The notes under the pieces: generated by a model
The model's input: the letters and a program-made list of their open reading frames with translations, nothing else
What the model was told of the DNA's origin: nothing
Databases searched by the model: none
Made by a program: the position numbers and the translations under genes
Part shown: piece by piece, positions 58,361 through 64,000 of the stretch
How positions within the stretch are numbered: position 1 is the first letter of the stretch
Layout of the letters: every line of letters starts with the position of its first letter
DNA from: Pseudofrankia coriaricola
GTDB taxonomy: Bacteria; Actinomycetota; Actinomycetes; Frankiales; Frankiaceae
Direction: 5' to 3'
Length of the DNA: 64,000 nucleotides
NCBI RefSeq assembly: GCF_001854805.1
Contig: NZ_MBLO01000235.1
Span: 1 to 64,000 of the forward strand

Positions 58361-59146
58361 TCAGGCGGTCGCCACGAACGTCCAGACATGGGAGTCCGGT
58401 GTGGGCGACAGCCCGGCCTGGTAGTCGGCGTGCACGGTGACGGCGGTGAAGCCGGCCTCCCGGAGCAGGGCGGCGAACCCGTCCAGGTCGTACCGCTGGA
58501 GGCTGAAGTTCTGCAGCTCGGTCTCGACCAGCCGGCCGTCGCGCCAGCGCTCGTAGCGCAGCCAGCTGCTCACGACGCCTTCCTCCGGCTGCGCCGGGGG
58601 AAGGGAGCTGAGCGTCAGCATCTCGTCGCCGAGCCACCAGTGCCGCAACGGCCCAGGGCTGGTGGACTGTTCGAGCGGCTCGACGTCGACGATCAGCCGC
58701 CCGCCCGGCCGCAGGCTTTCCCGGAGGTTGCGCAAGGCCTGGGCGGCGCGCTCACGGCCGGTCACCAATGCGAACGACCCGGTCGGGATCACGACCGCGG
58801 CAAAGGCGGCCGGTTCCTGAAAGGTCACCAGGTCGGCCTCGAACAACACGGGGTCCAGCCCGTGGGCGGCGCAGTTGTCGCGGCAGATCGTGAGCATGGC
58901 GGGCGAGGGGTCGAACCCGCGTACCCGGAATCCCGCCTGCAGCAGGGGAATGAGTATCCGGCCGGTCCCGACCGCCGGTTCCAGGATTTCGCCGGAAGTC
59001 CCGGCCAGCAGGTCCCGGTAGAACTCGACATCGCCAGAGGACGTCCCGACGGGCTTGTCGAGCTGGTAGACCAGCGAACAGAGCGGACCGTAGTCCGAGG
59101 AAGTCCTGGACGACCTGTCCACCCGCTCCGGTTCTCCCGTCGTCAT
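58361..59146 (-). CDS. class I SAM-dependent methyltransferase
   Basis: A 261-residue methyltransferase. Motif I is ILEPAVGTGRILIPLLQAGF, the acidic residue after strand 2 lies in RVRGFDPSPAMLTICRDNCA, and the motif IV region reads FAAVVIPTGSFALV. The C-terminal half (YERWRDGRLVETELQNFSLQ; LLREAGFTAVTVHADYQ) fits the small-molecule methyltransferase group. The acceptor is unknown. Its ATG overlaps the stop codon of the phosphotransferase-like gene in that gene's corrected frame (ATGA), so the two form an operon and may act on the same compound. Confidence 0.88.
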   Translation of the reverse strand: MTTGEPERVDRSSRTSSDYGPLCSLVYQLDKPVGTSSGDVEFYRDLLAGTSGEILEPAVGTGRILIPLLQAGFRVRGFDPSPAMLTICRDNCAAHGLDPVLFEADLVTFQEPAAFAAVVIPTGSFALVTGRERAAQALRNLRESLRPGGRLIVDVEPLEQSTSPGPLRHWWLGDEMLTLSSLPPAQPEEGVVSSWLRYERWRDGRLVETELQNFSLQRYDLDGFAALLREAGFTAVTVHADYQAGLSPTPDSHVWTFVATA

Positions 59147-60425
59147 GCTTCGGCGGCGGCGCTGGTGGCGGCGGCGCTGGTGGTGGCGACGGCGGAGGCC
59201 TCGCGCAGCGCGGCACGGACGGTCGCGGCCGGGTCACCGGCGTGGTAGATGCGCTCGCTGGGCTCGATGTTGTCCAGGAACTCCTGGTACCTGACCGCGT
59301 AGGAGAGCTGGCCGAGGGGCGCGGCGACGGCCAGCGCGCGGGCCGGGTCGCTGCCGGGCATGCGGTCTTCCACGCCGTCACCCACGTGTCGGCGGCGTAC
59401 GCCGCCGACACGTGGTCGGTCAGGAAGTCGCGGAGACGCAGGCCGTCGAGGACCGGATTGCCCACATGACTGTCGGCGAAGTCGAGGATCGTCGTGCGCC
59501 GCCCGTCCGATCTCCAGTTCCCCGGGTGCAGGTCGCCGTGGACGAGGGTGTCCGGCAGCCCGCAGGCGGCCAGCTCCGCCATCAGGCCGGGCAGGCGTCC
59601 GGCGAGGTCGCGGGCGGCGGTGAGATCGTCCGGGCCGAGCTCGCCGCCCGTCTCACCGTCGAGCAGCTTCGCGACCTGCTCGACCAGCGTGGGCATGGTC
59701 CGGTCCGGCAGGCCGCGGGGCAGCGCCGCGGGGTCGCGGGCCAGCACCGCCTGGGCGGCCACCAGCTGGCCGACGGCCGCGCGGATGGCGGCCGGTGACG
59801 CCTCCCACCTGTCGGTGCCGGGCGCGTGTTCCAGCAGCATGCGGCCGGCGGCGGGGTCCGCCGCGATCACGCGCGGTACCAGCTCGGGGTCCACCCGTCC
59901 GAAGGCGCCGATCACGGCGGCCTCCGGGGCGGCGAACGGGGGAGTGGTCTTCAGCCAGGCCGGCCCCCGCGCGGTCGGGAACCGGAACAGCCCCGCCAGG
60001 TTCCAGGTCTTGACCTGCTCCGCCGGCCCGCCCGCCGGTCGGCCAGCGGTAGCCAGCGCCACCCGCGCCCGGTCCAGGATCTCGGCGAGGCCGTCGGGCG
60101 TCGCCCAGCTCGCCCGCGACGCGACGTGCCCGGCCAGCTCGTCCTGGTCGCCTGGCTGGTCGCCGGGCCAGGGCGTGAGCCGCCGGGTATTCGGCCGGCC
60201 GAAGGCTTCGACGTGGTAGCGGACATGTCCATGGCGGGCACCGTCACCGCCGTCGACGCCTGGCAGGCGCAGCACCAGCACCGGCGCGCCGAGCTCCTGG
60301 CGCAGCCGGGCGACGACCGGTTCGACGTCGGCCCACCACGGGGTGTCCGCCGGAAAGGGACCGCAGGTCCCGAGGCAGTCGTCGCCCGCGGTCACCACCG
60401 CGCTGAACGTCCGGCCTCGCGTCAC
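59143..60425 (-). CDS. aminoglycoside phosphotransferase family protein, frameshifted
   Basis: An APH/choline-kinase-fold protein of about 425 residues. The catalytic loop is LVHGDLHPGNWRSD (HGDLHxGN) and the metal motif is TILDFADSHVGNP. The original frame runs correctly through DFLTDHVSAAYAADTWVTAW and then diverges near 59358, while another frame continues with MPGSDPARALAVAAPLGQLS, then RYQEFLDNIEPSERIYH, exactly the expected tail. One missing base in a CCGG run explains it; this is either a real mutation or a sequence error. A perfect 34-base palindrome at 59382-59415 lies just upstream of the shift. The corrected stop overlaps the methyltransferase start (ATGA). The substrate is unknown and need not be an antibiotic. 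Confidence 0.75.
59382..59415. repeat. perfect 34-base palindrome inside the phosphotransferase gene
   Basis: The arm CCACGTGTCGGCGGCGT is followed directly by its exact complement, with no loop. It encodes part of HVSAAYAADTW. Such cruciform-forming sequence is mutagenic, and the probable frameshift lies about 20 bases further along the gene. Confidence 0.9.
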
Positions 60426-61835: not shown

Positions 61836-62729
61836 TTACGGGTGGTCGGTCCGGTAGGTGAGCCAGGTCCGTCCGGCCGCGGCGGCGCGGGCGCGGTGCG
61901 GACGCTGGTCCTTCGGTCCGAGCCGGGCCTTGTACTCGCGGAACAGTGACCACAACGCGGCCAGGCCGGCGACCGCGTTCGGCGGGGCGGTCTCCCATGC
62001 GGGCATTTCGGCGACGAGAGCCTCGGCCCGGGCCGGGGAATGTCCGGCTTCGATGAGGCGTGGGACGACCATCGCGGCGTCGATCCACGGTGCGCCCTGG
62101 CAGGCGAACGCCCAGTCGAGGATCTGCGGGCCGTCCGCGGTCATGCGGATGTTGCCCGAGTGCAGGTCGTAGTGGAGCAGGCTGTCGCCGTCGAAGGCGT
62201 CGGCGGGCAGCGCGTTGAGGGCGGCGGCGTAGAGGTCCAGGTCGGGGACGTCCAGGTCGGTTCGGCCGAGAAGACGGTGCGCCTTCTCGAACAGGCCGTC
62301 GATGCGGCTCGTGACGGGCGGTGCCTCGGGCCACGTGCAGGATGTCATGACCTTGCCCAGGCCGCGGAGCAGGTCACCGATGGCGGGCAGGTCCGGCGAG
62401 CCGGGGTGGAGGTCGGCTGACCGCCCGTCGAGGAAGGGGAACGCCAGCAGGACCCAGCCGTCGAGTTCGGCTGTCCACAGCAGCCGTGGCGCGGGTACGC
62501 CGCGCGGCAGATGTCCGTTGGCGTCTCGTTCGGTGAGATAGAGGCTGGCCGCGGGGCTGTCGAGGTCGACACCCTTGAGGAAGACGTCGCCGCTATGGCA
62601 GCCGTGGAGGTGGCAGGCCAGGCCCGGCATGAGCCCGCCCGGGATGTCCTCGACCATGTCCGGGCCGAACACGGCTTCGGTCGCGGCGTGGACCGAGTCC
62701 GGGAGATCGTTCCAGGTCGCCCGCAGCAC
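61836..62729 (-). CDS. phosphotransferase family protein (APH fold)
   Basis: A 297-residue kinase-like protein. The catalytic loop reads LLHYDLHSGNIRM (H-x-D-LH-x-GN) and the metal aspartate appears in QILDWAFACQGAPWIDAAM. The N lobe shows SGDVFLKGVDLD with the candidate ATP lysine. It would phosphorylate a small hydroxyl compound; resistance need not be its role. GTG 62729 follows GGGAGGTC by about eight bases. It begins two bases after the stop of the Cys-tailed upstream gene, so they are co-transcribed under the promoter with the triple palindrome at 63355-63420. Similar gene pairs seem common in Streptomyces relatives (from memory). Confidence 0.87.
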   Translation of the reverse strand: MLRATWNDLPDSVHAATEAVFGPDMVEDIPGGLMPGLACHLHGCHSGDVFLKGVDLDSPAASLYLTERDANGHLPRGVPAPRLLWTAELDGWVLLAFPFLDGRSADLHPGSPDLPAIGDLLRGLGKVMTSCTWPEAPPVTSRIDGLFEKAHRLLGRTDLDVPDLDLYAAALNALPADAFDGDSLLHYDLHSGNIRMTADGPQILDWAFACQGAPWIDAAMVVPRLIEAGHSPARAEALVAEMPAWETAPPNAVAGLAALWSLFREYKARLGPKDQRPHRARAAAAGRTWLTYRTDHP

Positions 62730-62730
62730 G

Positions 62731-63195
62731 TCAGACCTCCCTGGGGTCGTCGTGGCAGCCCTGGTAGCACTGCGAGCATTTGCCGTTGCAGTCGGCTGCG
62801 TGGCCCCACAGGTCCGCGTCGACCTCGTATCCGGCCTGCCGCATCGCGACCACGGTAGTGCCCAGCGCGCAGACGTTGACCGGCCTGTCGCGCGCCGGGT
62901 CGTCGTCCGGGACATGATCCAGGAACCGGCCCGCGGCCCGCTGGCAGAAATCGGCGTAGTCACGGGTGTACATGAGAGCGATGTGCCATCCGTAGTCGAT
63001 GGTCCGTGACGGGCGGAGCGGGATGGCACTGGTGGCGGCCGTCGCGAGGAACGCGAACGTCTGGTCGACGACCCGTTCGGCCATGTCGGCCAGGTCCGGG
63101 TGGTCGGTGGCGAGCCGGGTCGTCAGCCGGGCGAATAGACCTGGATCGATCAGATCGCGGCCCGTGCGAGGTGGGGAAAGCGCAAGGGTTGACAC
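62731..63195 (-). CDS. GRDP-like (glycine-rich-domain-type) protein with Cys-rich tail
   Basis: A 154-residue small protein. The central part YGWHIALMYTRDYADFCQRA, then GRFLDHVPDD, follows the GRDP/DUF1399 pattern of W-H---L-T--Y--FC---G-F--H-P. The C terminus contains DCNGKCSQCYQGCHDD, four cysteines spaced C-x3-C-x2-C-x3-C plus a histidine, a plausible zinc or iron-sulfur site. No enzyme activity is known for this type. GTG 63195 has a near-perfect AAGGAGG ribosome site. It is first in a two-gene operon with the phosphotransferase and is divergent from the GntR gene, whose operators lie in between. Confidence 0.75.
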   Translation of the reverse strand: MSTLALSPPRTGRDLIDPGLFARLTTRLATDHPDLADMAERVVDQTFAFLATAATSAIPLRPSRTIDYGWHIALMYTRDYADFCQRAAGRFLDHVPDDDPARDRPVNVCALGTTVVAMRQAGYEVDADLWGHAADCNGKCSQCYQGCHDDPREV

Positions 63196-63354
63196 GAGGC
63201 CTCCTTGAGGATTCGCGCCTGGGCCGGGCCGTTGTTCACCCGGGTGGGCGCGGGCGTGTGGAACGGGGTGCGGGTGGCCAGGTCAGCAGCGGTCGATGCC
63301 GACATAGGTCGGATCAAAACGCTTGTCTGAGTGTTCGAACGCCGGCCGTTCAGT

Positions 63355-63420
63355 CCTTCCTAGGAAGGTGCCGCAACGGTGACACAATCTTCCTAGGAAG
63401 GTCAAGGCCTTCCTAGGAAG
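63355..63420. promoter_or_regulatory. three-copy GntR operator array
   Basis: The palindrome CTTCCTAGGAAG occurs at 63356-63367, 63389-63400 and 63409-63420; the first copy extends to 14 bases (CCTTCCTAGGAAGG). Centres are 33 and 20 bases apart. The array lies between the divergent GRDP-like and GntR genes, 18 bases before the GntR start, and is probably bound by the GntR product. Confidence 0.85.
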
Positions 63421-63437
63421 CATTTAGACTCGGGTCT

Positions 63438-64000
63438 GTGACCAGCGGCAACCGAGGAGCGTCGGATCGCATCGCGGCCGAACTCCGCGAGCAGATCAAC
63501 TCCGGTGCTCTGCGTCCAGGTGCCGCGCTCCCGTCGACCGCTGAACTGGCCCGGCGCTACGGAGTCGCCTCGGAGACCGCCCGCTTGGCCGTTGCGCGGC
63601 TAAAGGAGCAGGGACTCCTGATCGGCCGCGCCGGCGCCGGTGTGTACGTCCGGCCTCGGCCGCCCCTGCGCCGGCTCGGCATCGATCGATACGACAAGGC
63701 GAAGTGGCGTGACGCGGACGTTGTGGCCTTCGCGGCTGATCGCGAGGCCTCCGGGCGATCGTGGGAGCCCTCCGACCAGACGCAGACGGTGAGCCGGATT
63801 CCGGCGCCCGACAGGGTCGCTGCCGCCCTCGGTCTACCGTCGGGCGCCGATGTGTACGAGCGCGCCCGGATAGTGCGCGAACAGGGCGAACCCACCCACA
63901 CGCTCACCAGCTACTACCGGCTCGAGCACGTGGAGGGGACGCGCCTGGTCAACGCGACCGCCGGACCGGCTGGACCAGGCGGGGGGTTCCGGGTCCTGTA
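63438..64000 (+). CDS. GntR family regulator, HutC/UTRA-type, partial at window edge
   Basis: The frame is open from GTG 63438 to the window end. The N terminus is a GntR winged helix (RIAAELREQINSGALRPGAA; LARRYGVASETARLAVARLK; GRAGAGVYVRPRPPL). The remaining visible residues (GADVYERARIVREQGEPTHT, then LTSYYRLEHVEGTRL) match the start of a UTRA ligand domain, as in HutC-type regulators. It is not an FCD regulator like the two at the left end of the window. The start directly follows the operator array, suggesting autoregulation together with the divergent GRDP/phosphotransferase operon. The C terminus lies outside the window. Confidence 0.87.
   Translation, partial: MTSGNRGASDRIAAELREQINSGALRPGAALPSTAELARRYGVASETARLAVARLKEQGLLIGRAGAGVYVRPRPPLRRLGIDRYDKAKWRDADVVAFAADREASGRSWEPSDQTQTVSRIPAPDRVAAALGLPSGADVYERARIVREQGEPTHTLTSYYRLEHVEGTRLVNATAGPAGPGGGFRVL

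What the first reader, a model, noticed from the sequence alone, without database searches (positions are those of the whole stretch)
61836..63195. GRDP-like Cys-tailed protein coupled to an APH-fold kinase
The small protein ends in a C-x3-C-x2-C-x3-C-H cluster and is co-transcribed, two bases apart, with a phosphotransferase. Both are under a dedicated GntR. The trio looks like a compact functional module whose substrate and purpose I cannot name; the Cys tail could bind metal or even be modified.
Basis: partly seen in the sequence, partly recalled or inferred. Interest (0 to 1): 0.55.

Follow-up and report, generated by a model that had tools for sequence, protein, structure and literature searches.

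The report
Cys-tailed RiPP-like precursor with kinase
A small protein with a cysteine-rich floppy tail and the kinase encoded right after it look like a substrate-and-modifier pair in which the kinase chemically modifies the tail, an uncatalogued relative of peptide natural-product pathways.

Summary
The sequence observation holds. A 154-residue protein (62731-63195, minus strand) ends in C136-x3-C140-x2-C143-x3-C147-H. An APH-fold kinase starts one base after its stop codon. The 'dedicated GntR' does not hold: seven close orthologues keep the operator array and a following DUF218-type gene, without this pair beside them.

The small protein belongs to a mostly actinobacterial, partly phage-borne family that no Pfam, NCBIfam or PHROGs model reaches. 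AlphaFold gives a helical domain whose best fold match is a GRDP-like protein, plus a poorly ordered Cys-rich tail. All 111 scored members have a tail Cys; 105 have two or more. The downstream enzyme is exchanged between loci: this kinase subfamily, a methyltransferase, a protein kinase-like protein or an unknown.

The kinase subfamily also occurs beside short peptides ending CSCNAGDDNPY or GCNDDNPYK, mostly with a radical-SAM protein, and in the window's own genome with the curated 'FxLD system' methyltransferase. One tail type is scattered on the core-domain tree (AU p 4e-6, group named after seeing a tree) but nearly one clade on the kinase tree.

Best reading: a RiPP-like substrate with a folded GRDP-like leader and a Cys-rich core, modified by a dedicated kinase. 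The chemistry is not shown.

The parts
62731..63195 (-). Cys-tailed GRDP-like protein, 154 aa: helical domain (helices between residues 12 and 137) plus low-confidence tail
   Evidence: ORF and translation; family alignments A1 and A2; AlphaFold2 mean pLDDT 86.3, tail blocks 60, 47, 50; Foldseek to GRDP-like viral proteins
62752..62790 (-). Cys cluster of the tail, residues 136-148 (CNGKCSQCYQGCH): proposed core or modified segment
   Evidence: Direct reading; 111 of 111 scored members have a tail Cys; CSQCYQGCHDDP identical in L051 and L052, with synonymous differences in three codons among the three genes
61836..62729 (-). APH-fold kinase, 297 aa, GTG start one base after the stop of the Cys-tailed gene; HYDLHSGN and LDW motifs, a Lys and a Glu in the N-terminal lobe invariant in its subfamily
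   Evidence: PF01636 56.3 bits; alignment A3; AlphaFold2 pLDDT 92.1; Foldseek and VIA-align to APH, homoserine and choline kinases
63438..64000 (+). Divergent GntR/UTRA regulator (runs to 64229 in the contig): neighbour, probably not part of the module
   Evidence: PF00392 and PF07702; close orthologues elsewhere without the pair
63355..63420 (.). Three CTTCCTAGGAAG palindromes (63356-63367, 63389-63400, 63409-63420): probable operator array of the GntR module
   Evidence: the repeat finder; the only exact copies in the 11.2 Mb assembly; 2-3 copies, one mismatch allowed, beside 7 of 7 close GntR orthologues

Best explanation
The Cys-tailed protein is a RiPP-like substrate: a folded GRDP-like domain acts as leader or carrier and the disordered Cys-rich C-terminus is the modified segment. 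The kinase encoded next to it recognises this protein and phosphorylates the tail, most likely on a Ser/Thr (S141 of CSQC in the window; the Ser of the ASG-x-[DE]-[GC]-x-EN tails in the sister clade). No elimination enzyme was found, so the phosphate may be kept, may activate a ring closure onto Cys, or may be followed by unlinked steps. In other loci a methyltransferase or another kinase takes the enzyme slot. Shown: gene pairing, tail conservation, enzyme exchange, co-segregation of tail and kinase, and the kinase subfamily's second home beside RiPP-type peptides. Inferred: that the tail is the substrate, the acceptor residue, any maturation or release, and the biological role.
For: (1) Of 60 whole-genome loci (60 of the 87 places listed), 32 have this kinase subfamily within 1 kb downstream on the same strand and 11 have a methyltransferase (one locus has both); 6 and 3 more have two other recurring partners. 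(2) Tails: 111 of 111 scored have Cys, 105 of 111 two or more; 41 of 41 scored kinase-linked tails have at least two Cys and a Ser/Thr. (3) In 393 genomes (at most 6 candidates scored in each), the 55 kinase hits of 200 bits or more split into 31 with a GRDP gene upstream, 12 with a short Cys/Asp-rich peptide and 12 others. (4) 13 of the 36 kinase loci fetched carry such a peptide, 10 directly before the kinase, 12 of the 13 with a start codon and ribosome-binding motif; 12 of 36 carry the same radical-SAM type at 400 bits or more; in the window's own genome (G000:C22) the operon also holds TIGR04364 'methyltransferase, FxLD system', 502.7 bits over cut-off 320 (this one locus was tested). (5) Tail type follows the kinase, not the core domain: the 14 ASG rows are rejected as one clade on the core tree (AU p 4e-6), but ASG tails fall on one side of a 99* branch of the kinase tree (18 rows: 16 ASG, one CxQC, one frameshifted tail); 13 of 13 ASG-linked kinases that can be read (3 cannot) carry Q and 19 of 20 CxQC-linked carry N at the last position of HxDxxxxN. 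L072 and L074, from one genome: core 105/119 identical, tail 6/24, kinases 98/260. (6) APH-like CaoK phosphorylates Ser/Thr of a RiPP precursor (PMC9486802, abstract and passages).
Against: No protease, exporter or cleavage site was noticed (no systematic search). No HopA1-type lyase in the genome. No Ser/Thr position is shared by all tail types, and in L096 no Ser/Thr follows the first Cys. The core domain has many invariant residues (P62, D67, W70, H71, T77, G89, H94, P96, G122, W130 in A2), which would also suit an enzyme or metal site. The fusion L084 joins the domain to the kinase without a tail. In L059 and L110 the radical-SAM gene has its own short peptide and the GRDP gene lies further on. 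Twelve of 55 strong kinase hits have neither neighbour. The methyltransferase family did not repeat the peptide link. Tail and kinase are adjacent in DNA, so plain linkage after recombination within the core could also make them co-segregate; the ASG group was named after a first tree was seen, and the core tree rests on 130 columns. Only 8 of 49 viral contigs show the kinase (16 of 49 end within 900 bases after the gene).
Confidence: 0.55

Rival explanations
1. The Cys-tailed protein is a metal- or redox-active partner: the tail (C-x2-C-x3-C-H) and the conserved Asp/His/Cys of the helical domain bind a metal, and the kinase acts on a small molecule handled by the pair.
For: Cys and His in the tail; highly conserved D67, W70-H71, C84, H93-H94; the nearest solved folds to the kinase are small-molecule kinases (APH, homoserine, choline).
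Against: Tails with very different Cys number and spacing serve similar cores, unlike one metal site; one Cys only in 6 of 111; tail type follows the kinase clade; many of the kinase subfamily's other neighbours are short peptides.
Confidence: 0.2
2. Reversible protein phosphorylation: the kinase switches the GRDP-like protein on or off (signalling, toxin-antitoxin-like or phage-related control) and the tail is the regulatory switch, not a product.
For: Three loci have a protein kinase-like protein in the enzyme slot (L078, L081, L088, one cluster; L078: Pkinase 31.5 bits, just under cut-off 31.7); presence in phage Kromp three genes from the integrase and in 49 viral contigs; DUF5753- and DUF6879-type neighbours in 17 and 12 loci (representatives named).
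Against: Methyltransferases take the same slot; kinase relatives pair with peptide operons that hold radical-SAM and, in L198, FxLD-system genes; no PADLOC match for either window protein.
Confidence: 0.17
3. The trio GntR-GRDP-APH is a dedicated regulated metabolic module, as first proposed.
For: Divergent promoter region with three palindromes.
Against: GntR orthologues of 75-78% identity in six genomes, and a 94% partial one, keep the palindromes and a following DUF218-type gene without a GRDP gene nearby; the palindromes end 17 bases before the GntR start; no other pair tested has this GntR within 900 bases.
Confidence: 0.03
4. Carrier-protein logic: the tail is a scaffold on which a small product is assembled and from which it is released (as in pearlin-type carrier peptides, recalled).
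For: Exchangeable enzymes on a conserved carrier with a C-terminal Cys segment; the peptide relatives end in a recurring PY/PF C-terminus.
Against: No ligase or release enzyme was noticed in the pair loci; the C-terminal residue is not conserved in the GRDP tails.
Confidence: 0.05

Closest known systems
Folded-leader RiPP precursors: NHLP (nitrile hydratase-like) and Nif11 families
   Same: A protein-sized leader domain followed by a variable C-terminal segment rich in modifiable residues, paralogues within one genome, different modifying enzymes with related leaders (PMC2887384 and PMC12455567, abstracts and section lists only).
   Different: GRDP-like helical domain instead of nitrile hydratase or Nif11; no Gly-Gly site or ABC exporter noticed; the enzymes are an APH kinase or a methyltransferase instead of YcaO or lanthionine enzymes; no match to the Nif11 leader model beyond one chance-level hit.
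Class V lanthipeptide and thioamitide kinases (CaoK, LxmK, TvaC)
   Same: APH-fold kinase acting on a ribosomal substrate (PMC9486802 abstract and passages, PMC12141560 passages).
   Different: No HopA1-type lyase in the window's genome; substrate has a globular domain; sequence relation between the kinases was not tested beyond the common PF01636 fold.
TIGR04222 / MNIO-associated Cys-tailed proteins
   Same: Protein domain with C-terminal Cys-rich low-complexity tail, mostly actinobacterial, subsets proposed to be modified (PMC12452194, passages).
   Different: TIGR04222 proteins have transmembrane segments (same passages); no TIGR04222 match in 66 members; MNIO genes were not searched for by model.
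FxLD-system / radical-SAM short-peptide operons (loci L197-L201, L205-L207, L213, L214, L216-L218)
   Same: Same kinase subfamily after a gene whose product ends in a Cys/Asp-rich tail, directly in 10 of 13.
   Different: There the substrate candidate is a 43-73-aa peptide and the radical-SAM protein is present in 12 of these 13; among the GRDP loci scanned only L059 and L110 hold either.
Plant, fungal and giant-virus GRDP-like (DUF1399, PF07173) proteins
   Same: Fold match to giant-virus members.
   Different: The Pfam model reaches none of 66 members; the papers on plant GRDP concern growth and stress (search listing only).

Membership tests
RiPP precursor | Ribosomal substrate with a conserved N-terminal recognition part and a variable C-terminal core | tested here: met
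   Conserved helical domain, variable Cys-rich low-confidence tail; meets the form, not proof of function
RiPP precursor | Post-translational modification of the core by an enzyme of the cluster | not testable with these tools
   Needs biochemistry; only co-segregation of tail and kinase is shown
RiPP precursor | Leader removal and release or export | not tested
   No systematic search for proteases or exporters was run; none was noticed among the neighbour clusters, most of which were not named
Class V lanthipeptide | LanK kinase together with LanY (HopA1-like) lyase | tested here: not met
   No PF17914 match at E up to 0.01 in the window's genome; of 14 control genomes it rings in one, Corynebacterium glutamicum
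GRDP-like (PF07173) | Sequence match to the Pfam model over its cut-off | tested here: not met
   0 of 66 members at E up to 0.5; the model rang in none of 41 genomes nor in the 14 controls, so that genome search is no evidence of absence
GRDP-like (PF07173) | Shared fold with annotated GRDP-like proteins | tested here: met
   Foldseek BFVD rank 1, E 1.1e-3, prob 1.00, TMq 0.54, 119 columns, 23% identity; rank 4, also named glycine-rich domain-containing, E 0.62
APH phosphotransferase superfamily (PF01636) | Model match and catalytic HxDxxxxN and D residues | tested here: met
   56.3 bits; H188, D190, D207 invariant in the 28 rows of A3, the N is Q in the ASG clade; fold Z up to 19.1, rmsd 3.2 over 278 residues
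TIGR04222 | Match to the NCBIfam model | tested here: not met
   No match in 66 members at E up to 0.5
NHLP / Nif11 leader families | Match to the NCBIfam leader models | tested here: not met
   Window protein: none; one of 66 members hits leader_Nif11 at E 0.017, chance level

The most novel reading that the evidence does not exclude
GRDP-like domains are a third great family of folded RiPP leaders, unrecognised by present catalogues, carried by actinobacteria and their temperate phages, with a kinase as the sole dedicated modifier in many loci: a class of phospho- or kinase-cyclised Cys peptides made on a protein-sized scaffold and exchanged as tail-plus-enzyme cassettes.
Probability: 0.33. 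Interest if true: 0.82.

Novelty: new variant of a known kind. Interest (0 to 1): 0.62.

Why it matters
If true, RiPP genome mining misses a large family because its precursors are long and protein-like and none of the models tried here covers them. It would give APH-fold kinases, usually annotated as resistance or sugar kinases, a further substrate class, and it links phage-borne genes with peptide modification. The two-gene size makes it cheap to test in E. coli. Ten paper searches (open-licence PMC library only, listings read) showed no description of it.

Tried and rejected
GntR as partner: rejected. Class V lanthipeptide: no HopA1 lyase. PADLOC: no match for either window protein; matches for the neighbour methyltransferase, kinase-like and radical-SAM proteins are superfamily level; other family members were not scanned there. 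Family scans of the 66 members gave only chance-level best E-values (Pfam 0.023, NCBIfam 0.016, PHROGs 0.0088). PDB by sequence: one match at E 0.61 for the small-protein profile, none for the kinase at E up to 0.01. PDB by fold for the small protein: Foldseek best E 2.6, VIA-align best Z 2.4 (phycobilisome proteins and a reductase), not meaningful and no proof of a new fold. Sigma-70 promoters and terminators by consensus at 62700-64000: none found. MNIO link of the Gly/Cys-tailed relative L117: no MNIO-like gene was noticed in its 7.9 kb surroundings by reading, not tested by model. Methyltransferase family as a second test of the peptide link: 18 of 36 places lie just after a GRDP gene by comparison by eye, 3 more after a weaker GRDP piece (L231, L234, L236), none of the 18 fetched stretches holds a short peptide of the DNPY kind, so this enzyme does not repeat the peptide link; G341:C56 (L242/L229) does hold a methyltransferase, a radical-SAM protein with a Cys tail, and a kinase in one stretch.

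Limits and rows dropped: 60 of the 87 places listed were fetched (the 59 best and one more); the whole-genome searches scored at most 9, 6 and 7 candidates per genome, so counts are lower bounds. From alignment A1 (66 rows) L003 (same contig as L051), L013, L066, L101 (tails out of frame) and L084 (fusion) were left out, and L013, L066, L084 and L101 are therefore not in the tail counts. A2 leaves out cut or near-copy viral rows. In one search L003 and L142 were dropped as copies, and kinases in more than one frame (L061, L062, L068, L082, L086) went in as single open pieces. In one search, L098 and L170 could not be scored and the cut contigs L175 and L184 were left out. Tail types and the peptide patterns were written after seeing examples. 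In the first scan L060 was missed through my span rule; one search shows its kinase (314 bits).

Full report
WHAT IS THERE. On the minus strand, 62731-63195 encodes a 154-residue protein and 61836-62729 an APH-family kinase of 297 residues; the junction is TGA-C-GTG. The kinase passes PF01636 (56.3 bits, cut-off 23.2), has the catalytic HYDLHSGN and LDW motifs, and is predicted with pLDDT 92.1 in the APH fold. The genome is a Frankia-type actinobacterium (inference): a genome classed as same genus (G007) holds a 7,467-base contig with the same Cys-tailed protein as a 7,467-base record named Frankia sp..

THE GntR IS A NEIGHBOUR, NOT A PARTNER. Among 71 other loci with the Cys-tailed gene, none has a homologue of this GntR within 900 bases, as far as their flanks are held; five have weak or more distant hits. 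The GntR has orthologues of 75-78% identity in six genomes and a 94% partial one in G006. Beside all seven lie two or three copies of CTTCCTAGGAAG, one mismatch allowed, and a DUF218-type gene follows, as in the window's contig (the window's copy passes PF02698 at 57.1 bits; the others by likeness). None of the seven has a GRDP gene in the 3.5-3.8 kb held. The three window palindromes are the only exact copies in the 11.2 Mb assembly. So array, GntR and DUF218 gene form a module, probably autoregulated, that happens to lie divergent to the pair; control of the pair by it in this strain cannot be excluded.

THE FAMILY. The class search found the Cys-tailed protein in 63 of 393 genomes, with up to four matches in one genome. 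The named-genome scan gave 12 loci in Frankia, Actinomadura, Micromonospora, Streptomyces, Actinokineospora, Catellatospora and one Paceibacterota. 49 viral contigs encode it, and gp33 of Streptomyces phage Kromp lies three genes from its integrase. Of 66 members scanned none has more than a chance-level Pfam, NCBIfam or PHROGs match (best E 0.023, 0.016 and 0.0088). AlphaFold2 on the window protein with 44 relatives gives a helical domain at high confidence and a low-confidence tail. Foldseek's best viral match is a Harvfovirus 'Glycine-rich domain-containing protein-like' (E 1.1e-3, prob 1.00, TMq 0.54), followed by four further giant-virus proteins, one of them also named glycine-rich domain-containing. 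The name GRDP-like is thus supported by fold, not by the Pfam model.

THE TAIL. Over 111 scored members every tail has Cys, 105 have two or more, and Cys makes up 10.3% of tail against 1.4% of the remaining residues. Tail types include CSQCYQGCHDDP and CTQCHAGCTDSP, CADEGNCSASGKDGDEN...RIP, CNPPACCGDGDGC, CCPENC, CNTTCNHP, CDSDCGRPYGQ, CGPCHPGNDSH and CQHAPDCTIVIIPKPK. Between the window and its two nearest relatives the stretch CSQCYQGCHDDP is identical while three codons differ synonymously. The exact four-Cys spacing of the finding is variable; a Cys tail as such is not. Four fetched members (L013, L066, L084, L101) lack a readable tail in frame and are not in these counts.

THE ENZYME SLOT IS EXCHANGED. 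This kinase subfamily lies within 1 kb downstream on the same strand in 32 of 60 whole-genome loci (31, L060 added; L084 is a fusion, in L076 a methyltransferase gene lies between). A class I methyltransferase is directly downstream in 11 (PF08241 in the representative), an unknown protein of about 126 residues in 6 and a protein kinase-like protein in 3. On the core-domain tree the six labels, 'none' included, need 10 changes (least possible 5; shuffled mean 29.5); well-supported branches force only 2 for the kinase and 3 for the methyltransferase. The partner is thus inherited in clades but has been replaced several times.

THE KINASE'S OTHER HOME. A profile of 28 partner kinases was run on 393 genomes, at most six candidates scored in each. 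Of its 55 hits at 200 bits or more, 31 have a GRDP gene upstream. I fetched 36 neighbourhoods, among them all 24 of the 55 without an upstream GRDP match; three of the 36 proved to hold a GRDP gene or remnant. In 13 of the 36 there is a short peptide such as MTAVLVEITPGPTVDNEIVFIDDVDALVESSKCSCNAGDDNPY or one ending GCNDDNPYK, directly before the kinase in 10; 12 of the 13 have a start with a ribosome-binding motif. Twelve of the 36 hold the same kind of radical-SAM protein at 400 bits or more. In the window's own genome (G000:C22, locus L198) the order is FxLD-system methyltransferase (TIGR04364, 502.7 bits, cut-off 320) - radical-SAM protein - 47-aa peptide - kinase. Five further kinases follow a gene with a C-terminal CSPGxPxSxCxPRN-like tail (L219, L220, L222, L227, L229); L229's product passes the Radical_SAM and SPASM models and L219's matches radical-SAM models weakly, the others were judged by likeness. 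Twelve of the 55 hits have neither neighbour; of these G009:C133 keeps a remnant of a GRDP tail and G007:C179 is cut by the contig end. So in most cases the kinase is preceded by a gene whose product ends in a Cys-containing tail, and in one set of cases the surroundings are those of a RiPP system.

TAIL TRAVELS WITH KINASE. On the kinase tree the ASG-x-[DE]-[GC]-x-EN tails lie on one side of a branch of support 99* (18 rows: 16 ASG, one frameshifted tail L066, one CxQC exception L144; 3 changes of this label against 14.3 in shuffles). Where the residue can be read (3 cannot), 13 of 13 ASG-linked kinases, and L144 and L066, have Gln in place of the Asn of HxDxxxxN, and 19 of 20 CxQC-linked kinases have Asn. 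On the core-domain tree of 34 kinase-linked rows the 14 ASG rows need 6 changes and are rejected as one clade (AU p 4e-6); the group had been named after a first tree was seen, and the tree rests on 130 columns. L072 and L074 come from one genome: cores 105/119 identical, tails 6/24, kinases 98/260. Because tail and kinase are neighbours in DNA, recombination inside the conserved core would also move them together; the data show co-transfer, and suggest but do not prove selection for matching.

MECHANISM. Best supported: the helical domain is a folded leader or carrier, the tail is the modified segment, and the kinase phosphorylates it. Precedent for each half exists: structured leaders (NHLP, PMC12455567 and PMC2887384, abstracts and section lists read) and APH-like kinases phosphorylating RiPP precursors (CaoK, PMC9486802, abstract and passages; LxmK, PMC12141560, passages). 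All 41 kinase-linked tails scored contain Ser or Thr, but no position is shared by all types and L096 has none after its first Cys. The window's genome has no HopA1-type lyase, so dehydration in the class V manner is unlikely.

AGAINST THIS READING. In the two loci where a GRDP gene and the radical-SAM protein are near each other (L059, L110), the radical-SAM gene has its own short peptide (...GCGNDNPF or ...GCGEDNPF) and no kinase or methyltransferase follows the GRDP gene; the GRDP protein is then at best a second substrate. The methyltransferase family did not repeat the peptide link. The core domain's invariant residues (P62, D67, W70, H71, T77, G89, H94, P96, G122, W130) would suit a metal site or an enzyme. 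Only 8 of 49 viral contigs show the kinase and 3 the methyltransferase, though 16 of the 49 end within 900 bases after the gene. No exporter or protease was noticed, without a systematic search, and the fusion L084 lacks the tail.

NOVELTY. In form it is a new variant of a known kind, a folded-leader RiPP-like system, if the tail is the substrate. Ten paper searches in the held open-licence library, including one for five tail or peptide strings (no paper) and one for the GRDP domain's database names (13 papers; by title plant, fungal, animal and general), showed no description of it.

Noticed in passing
L197-L201, L205-L207, L213, L214, L216-L218; also L059 and L110: Uncatalogued short peptides ending CSC[SNQ]A[GD]DD-PY-like, GC[NG]DDNPY[RK] or GCG[NE]DNPF, mostly beside a radical-SAM protein and an APH kinase: apparently a RiPP-type operon without a model for its peptide, present in the window's own genome (G000:C22).
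   Followed up: partly
L219, L220, L222, L227, L229: A gene directly before an APH kinase encodes a C-terminal Cys tail (CSPGxPxSxCxPRN-like), in L229 on a radical-SAM/SPASM protein; the tail may be a built-in substrate or only an extended cluster-binding end.
   Followed up: partly
window 63355-64000 and contig to 64889 (L050 8272-8889): GntR - DUF218 gene module with two or three CTTCCTAGGAAG sites, conserved in seven other genomes of the family; the only exact copies of the site in this assembly.
   Followed up: partly
L187 (Streptomyces phage Kromp gp33); viral contigs L138-L186; L188 (Klebsiella phage 05F01): GRDP-like genes in a phage with integrase and in 49 viral contigs, some with kinase (8 of 49) or methyltransferase (3 of 49); five contigs end three bases after the gene, as if at a predicted provirus edge: possible lysogeny cargo.
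   Followed up: partly
window 58361-60425, minus strand: Another APH-domain gene (PF01636 53.3 bits) whose reading frame seems to shift near its C-terminus, followed by a class I methyltransferase gene.
   Followed up: no
L084: In-frame fusion of the GRDP-like domain with the kinase, lacking the Cys tail.
   Followed up: no
L014 4261-4764 and 5851-6249: A Paceibacterota contig carries two GRDP-like genes about 1.1 kb apart, both with Cys near the C-terminus.
   Followed up: no
L117 1222-2097: A more distant relative in the same phylum carries a long Gly/Cys-rich tail (..CGGGCGSGGGCGSSCGGGCGG..).
   Followed up: partly
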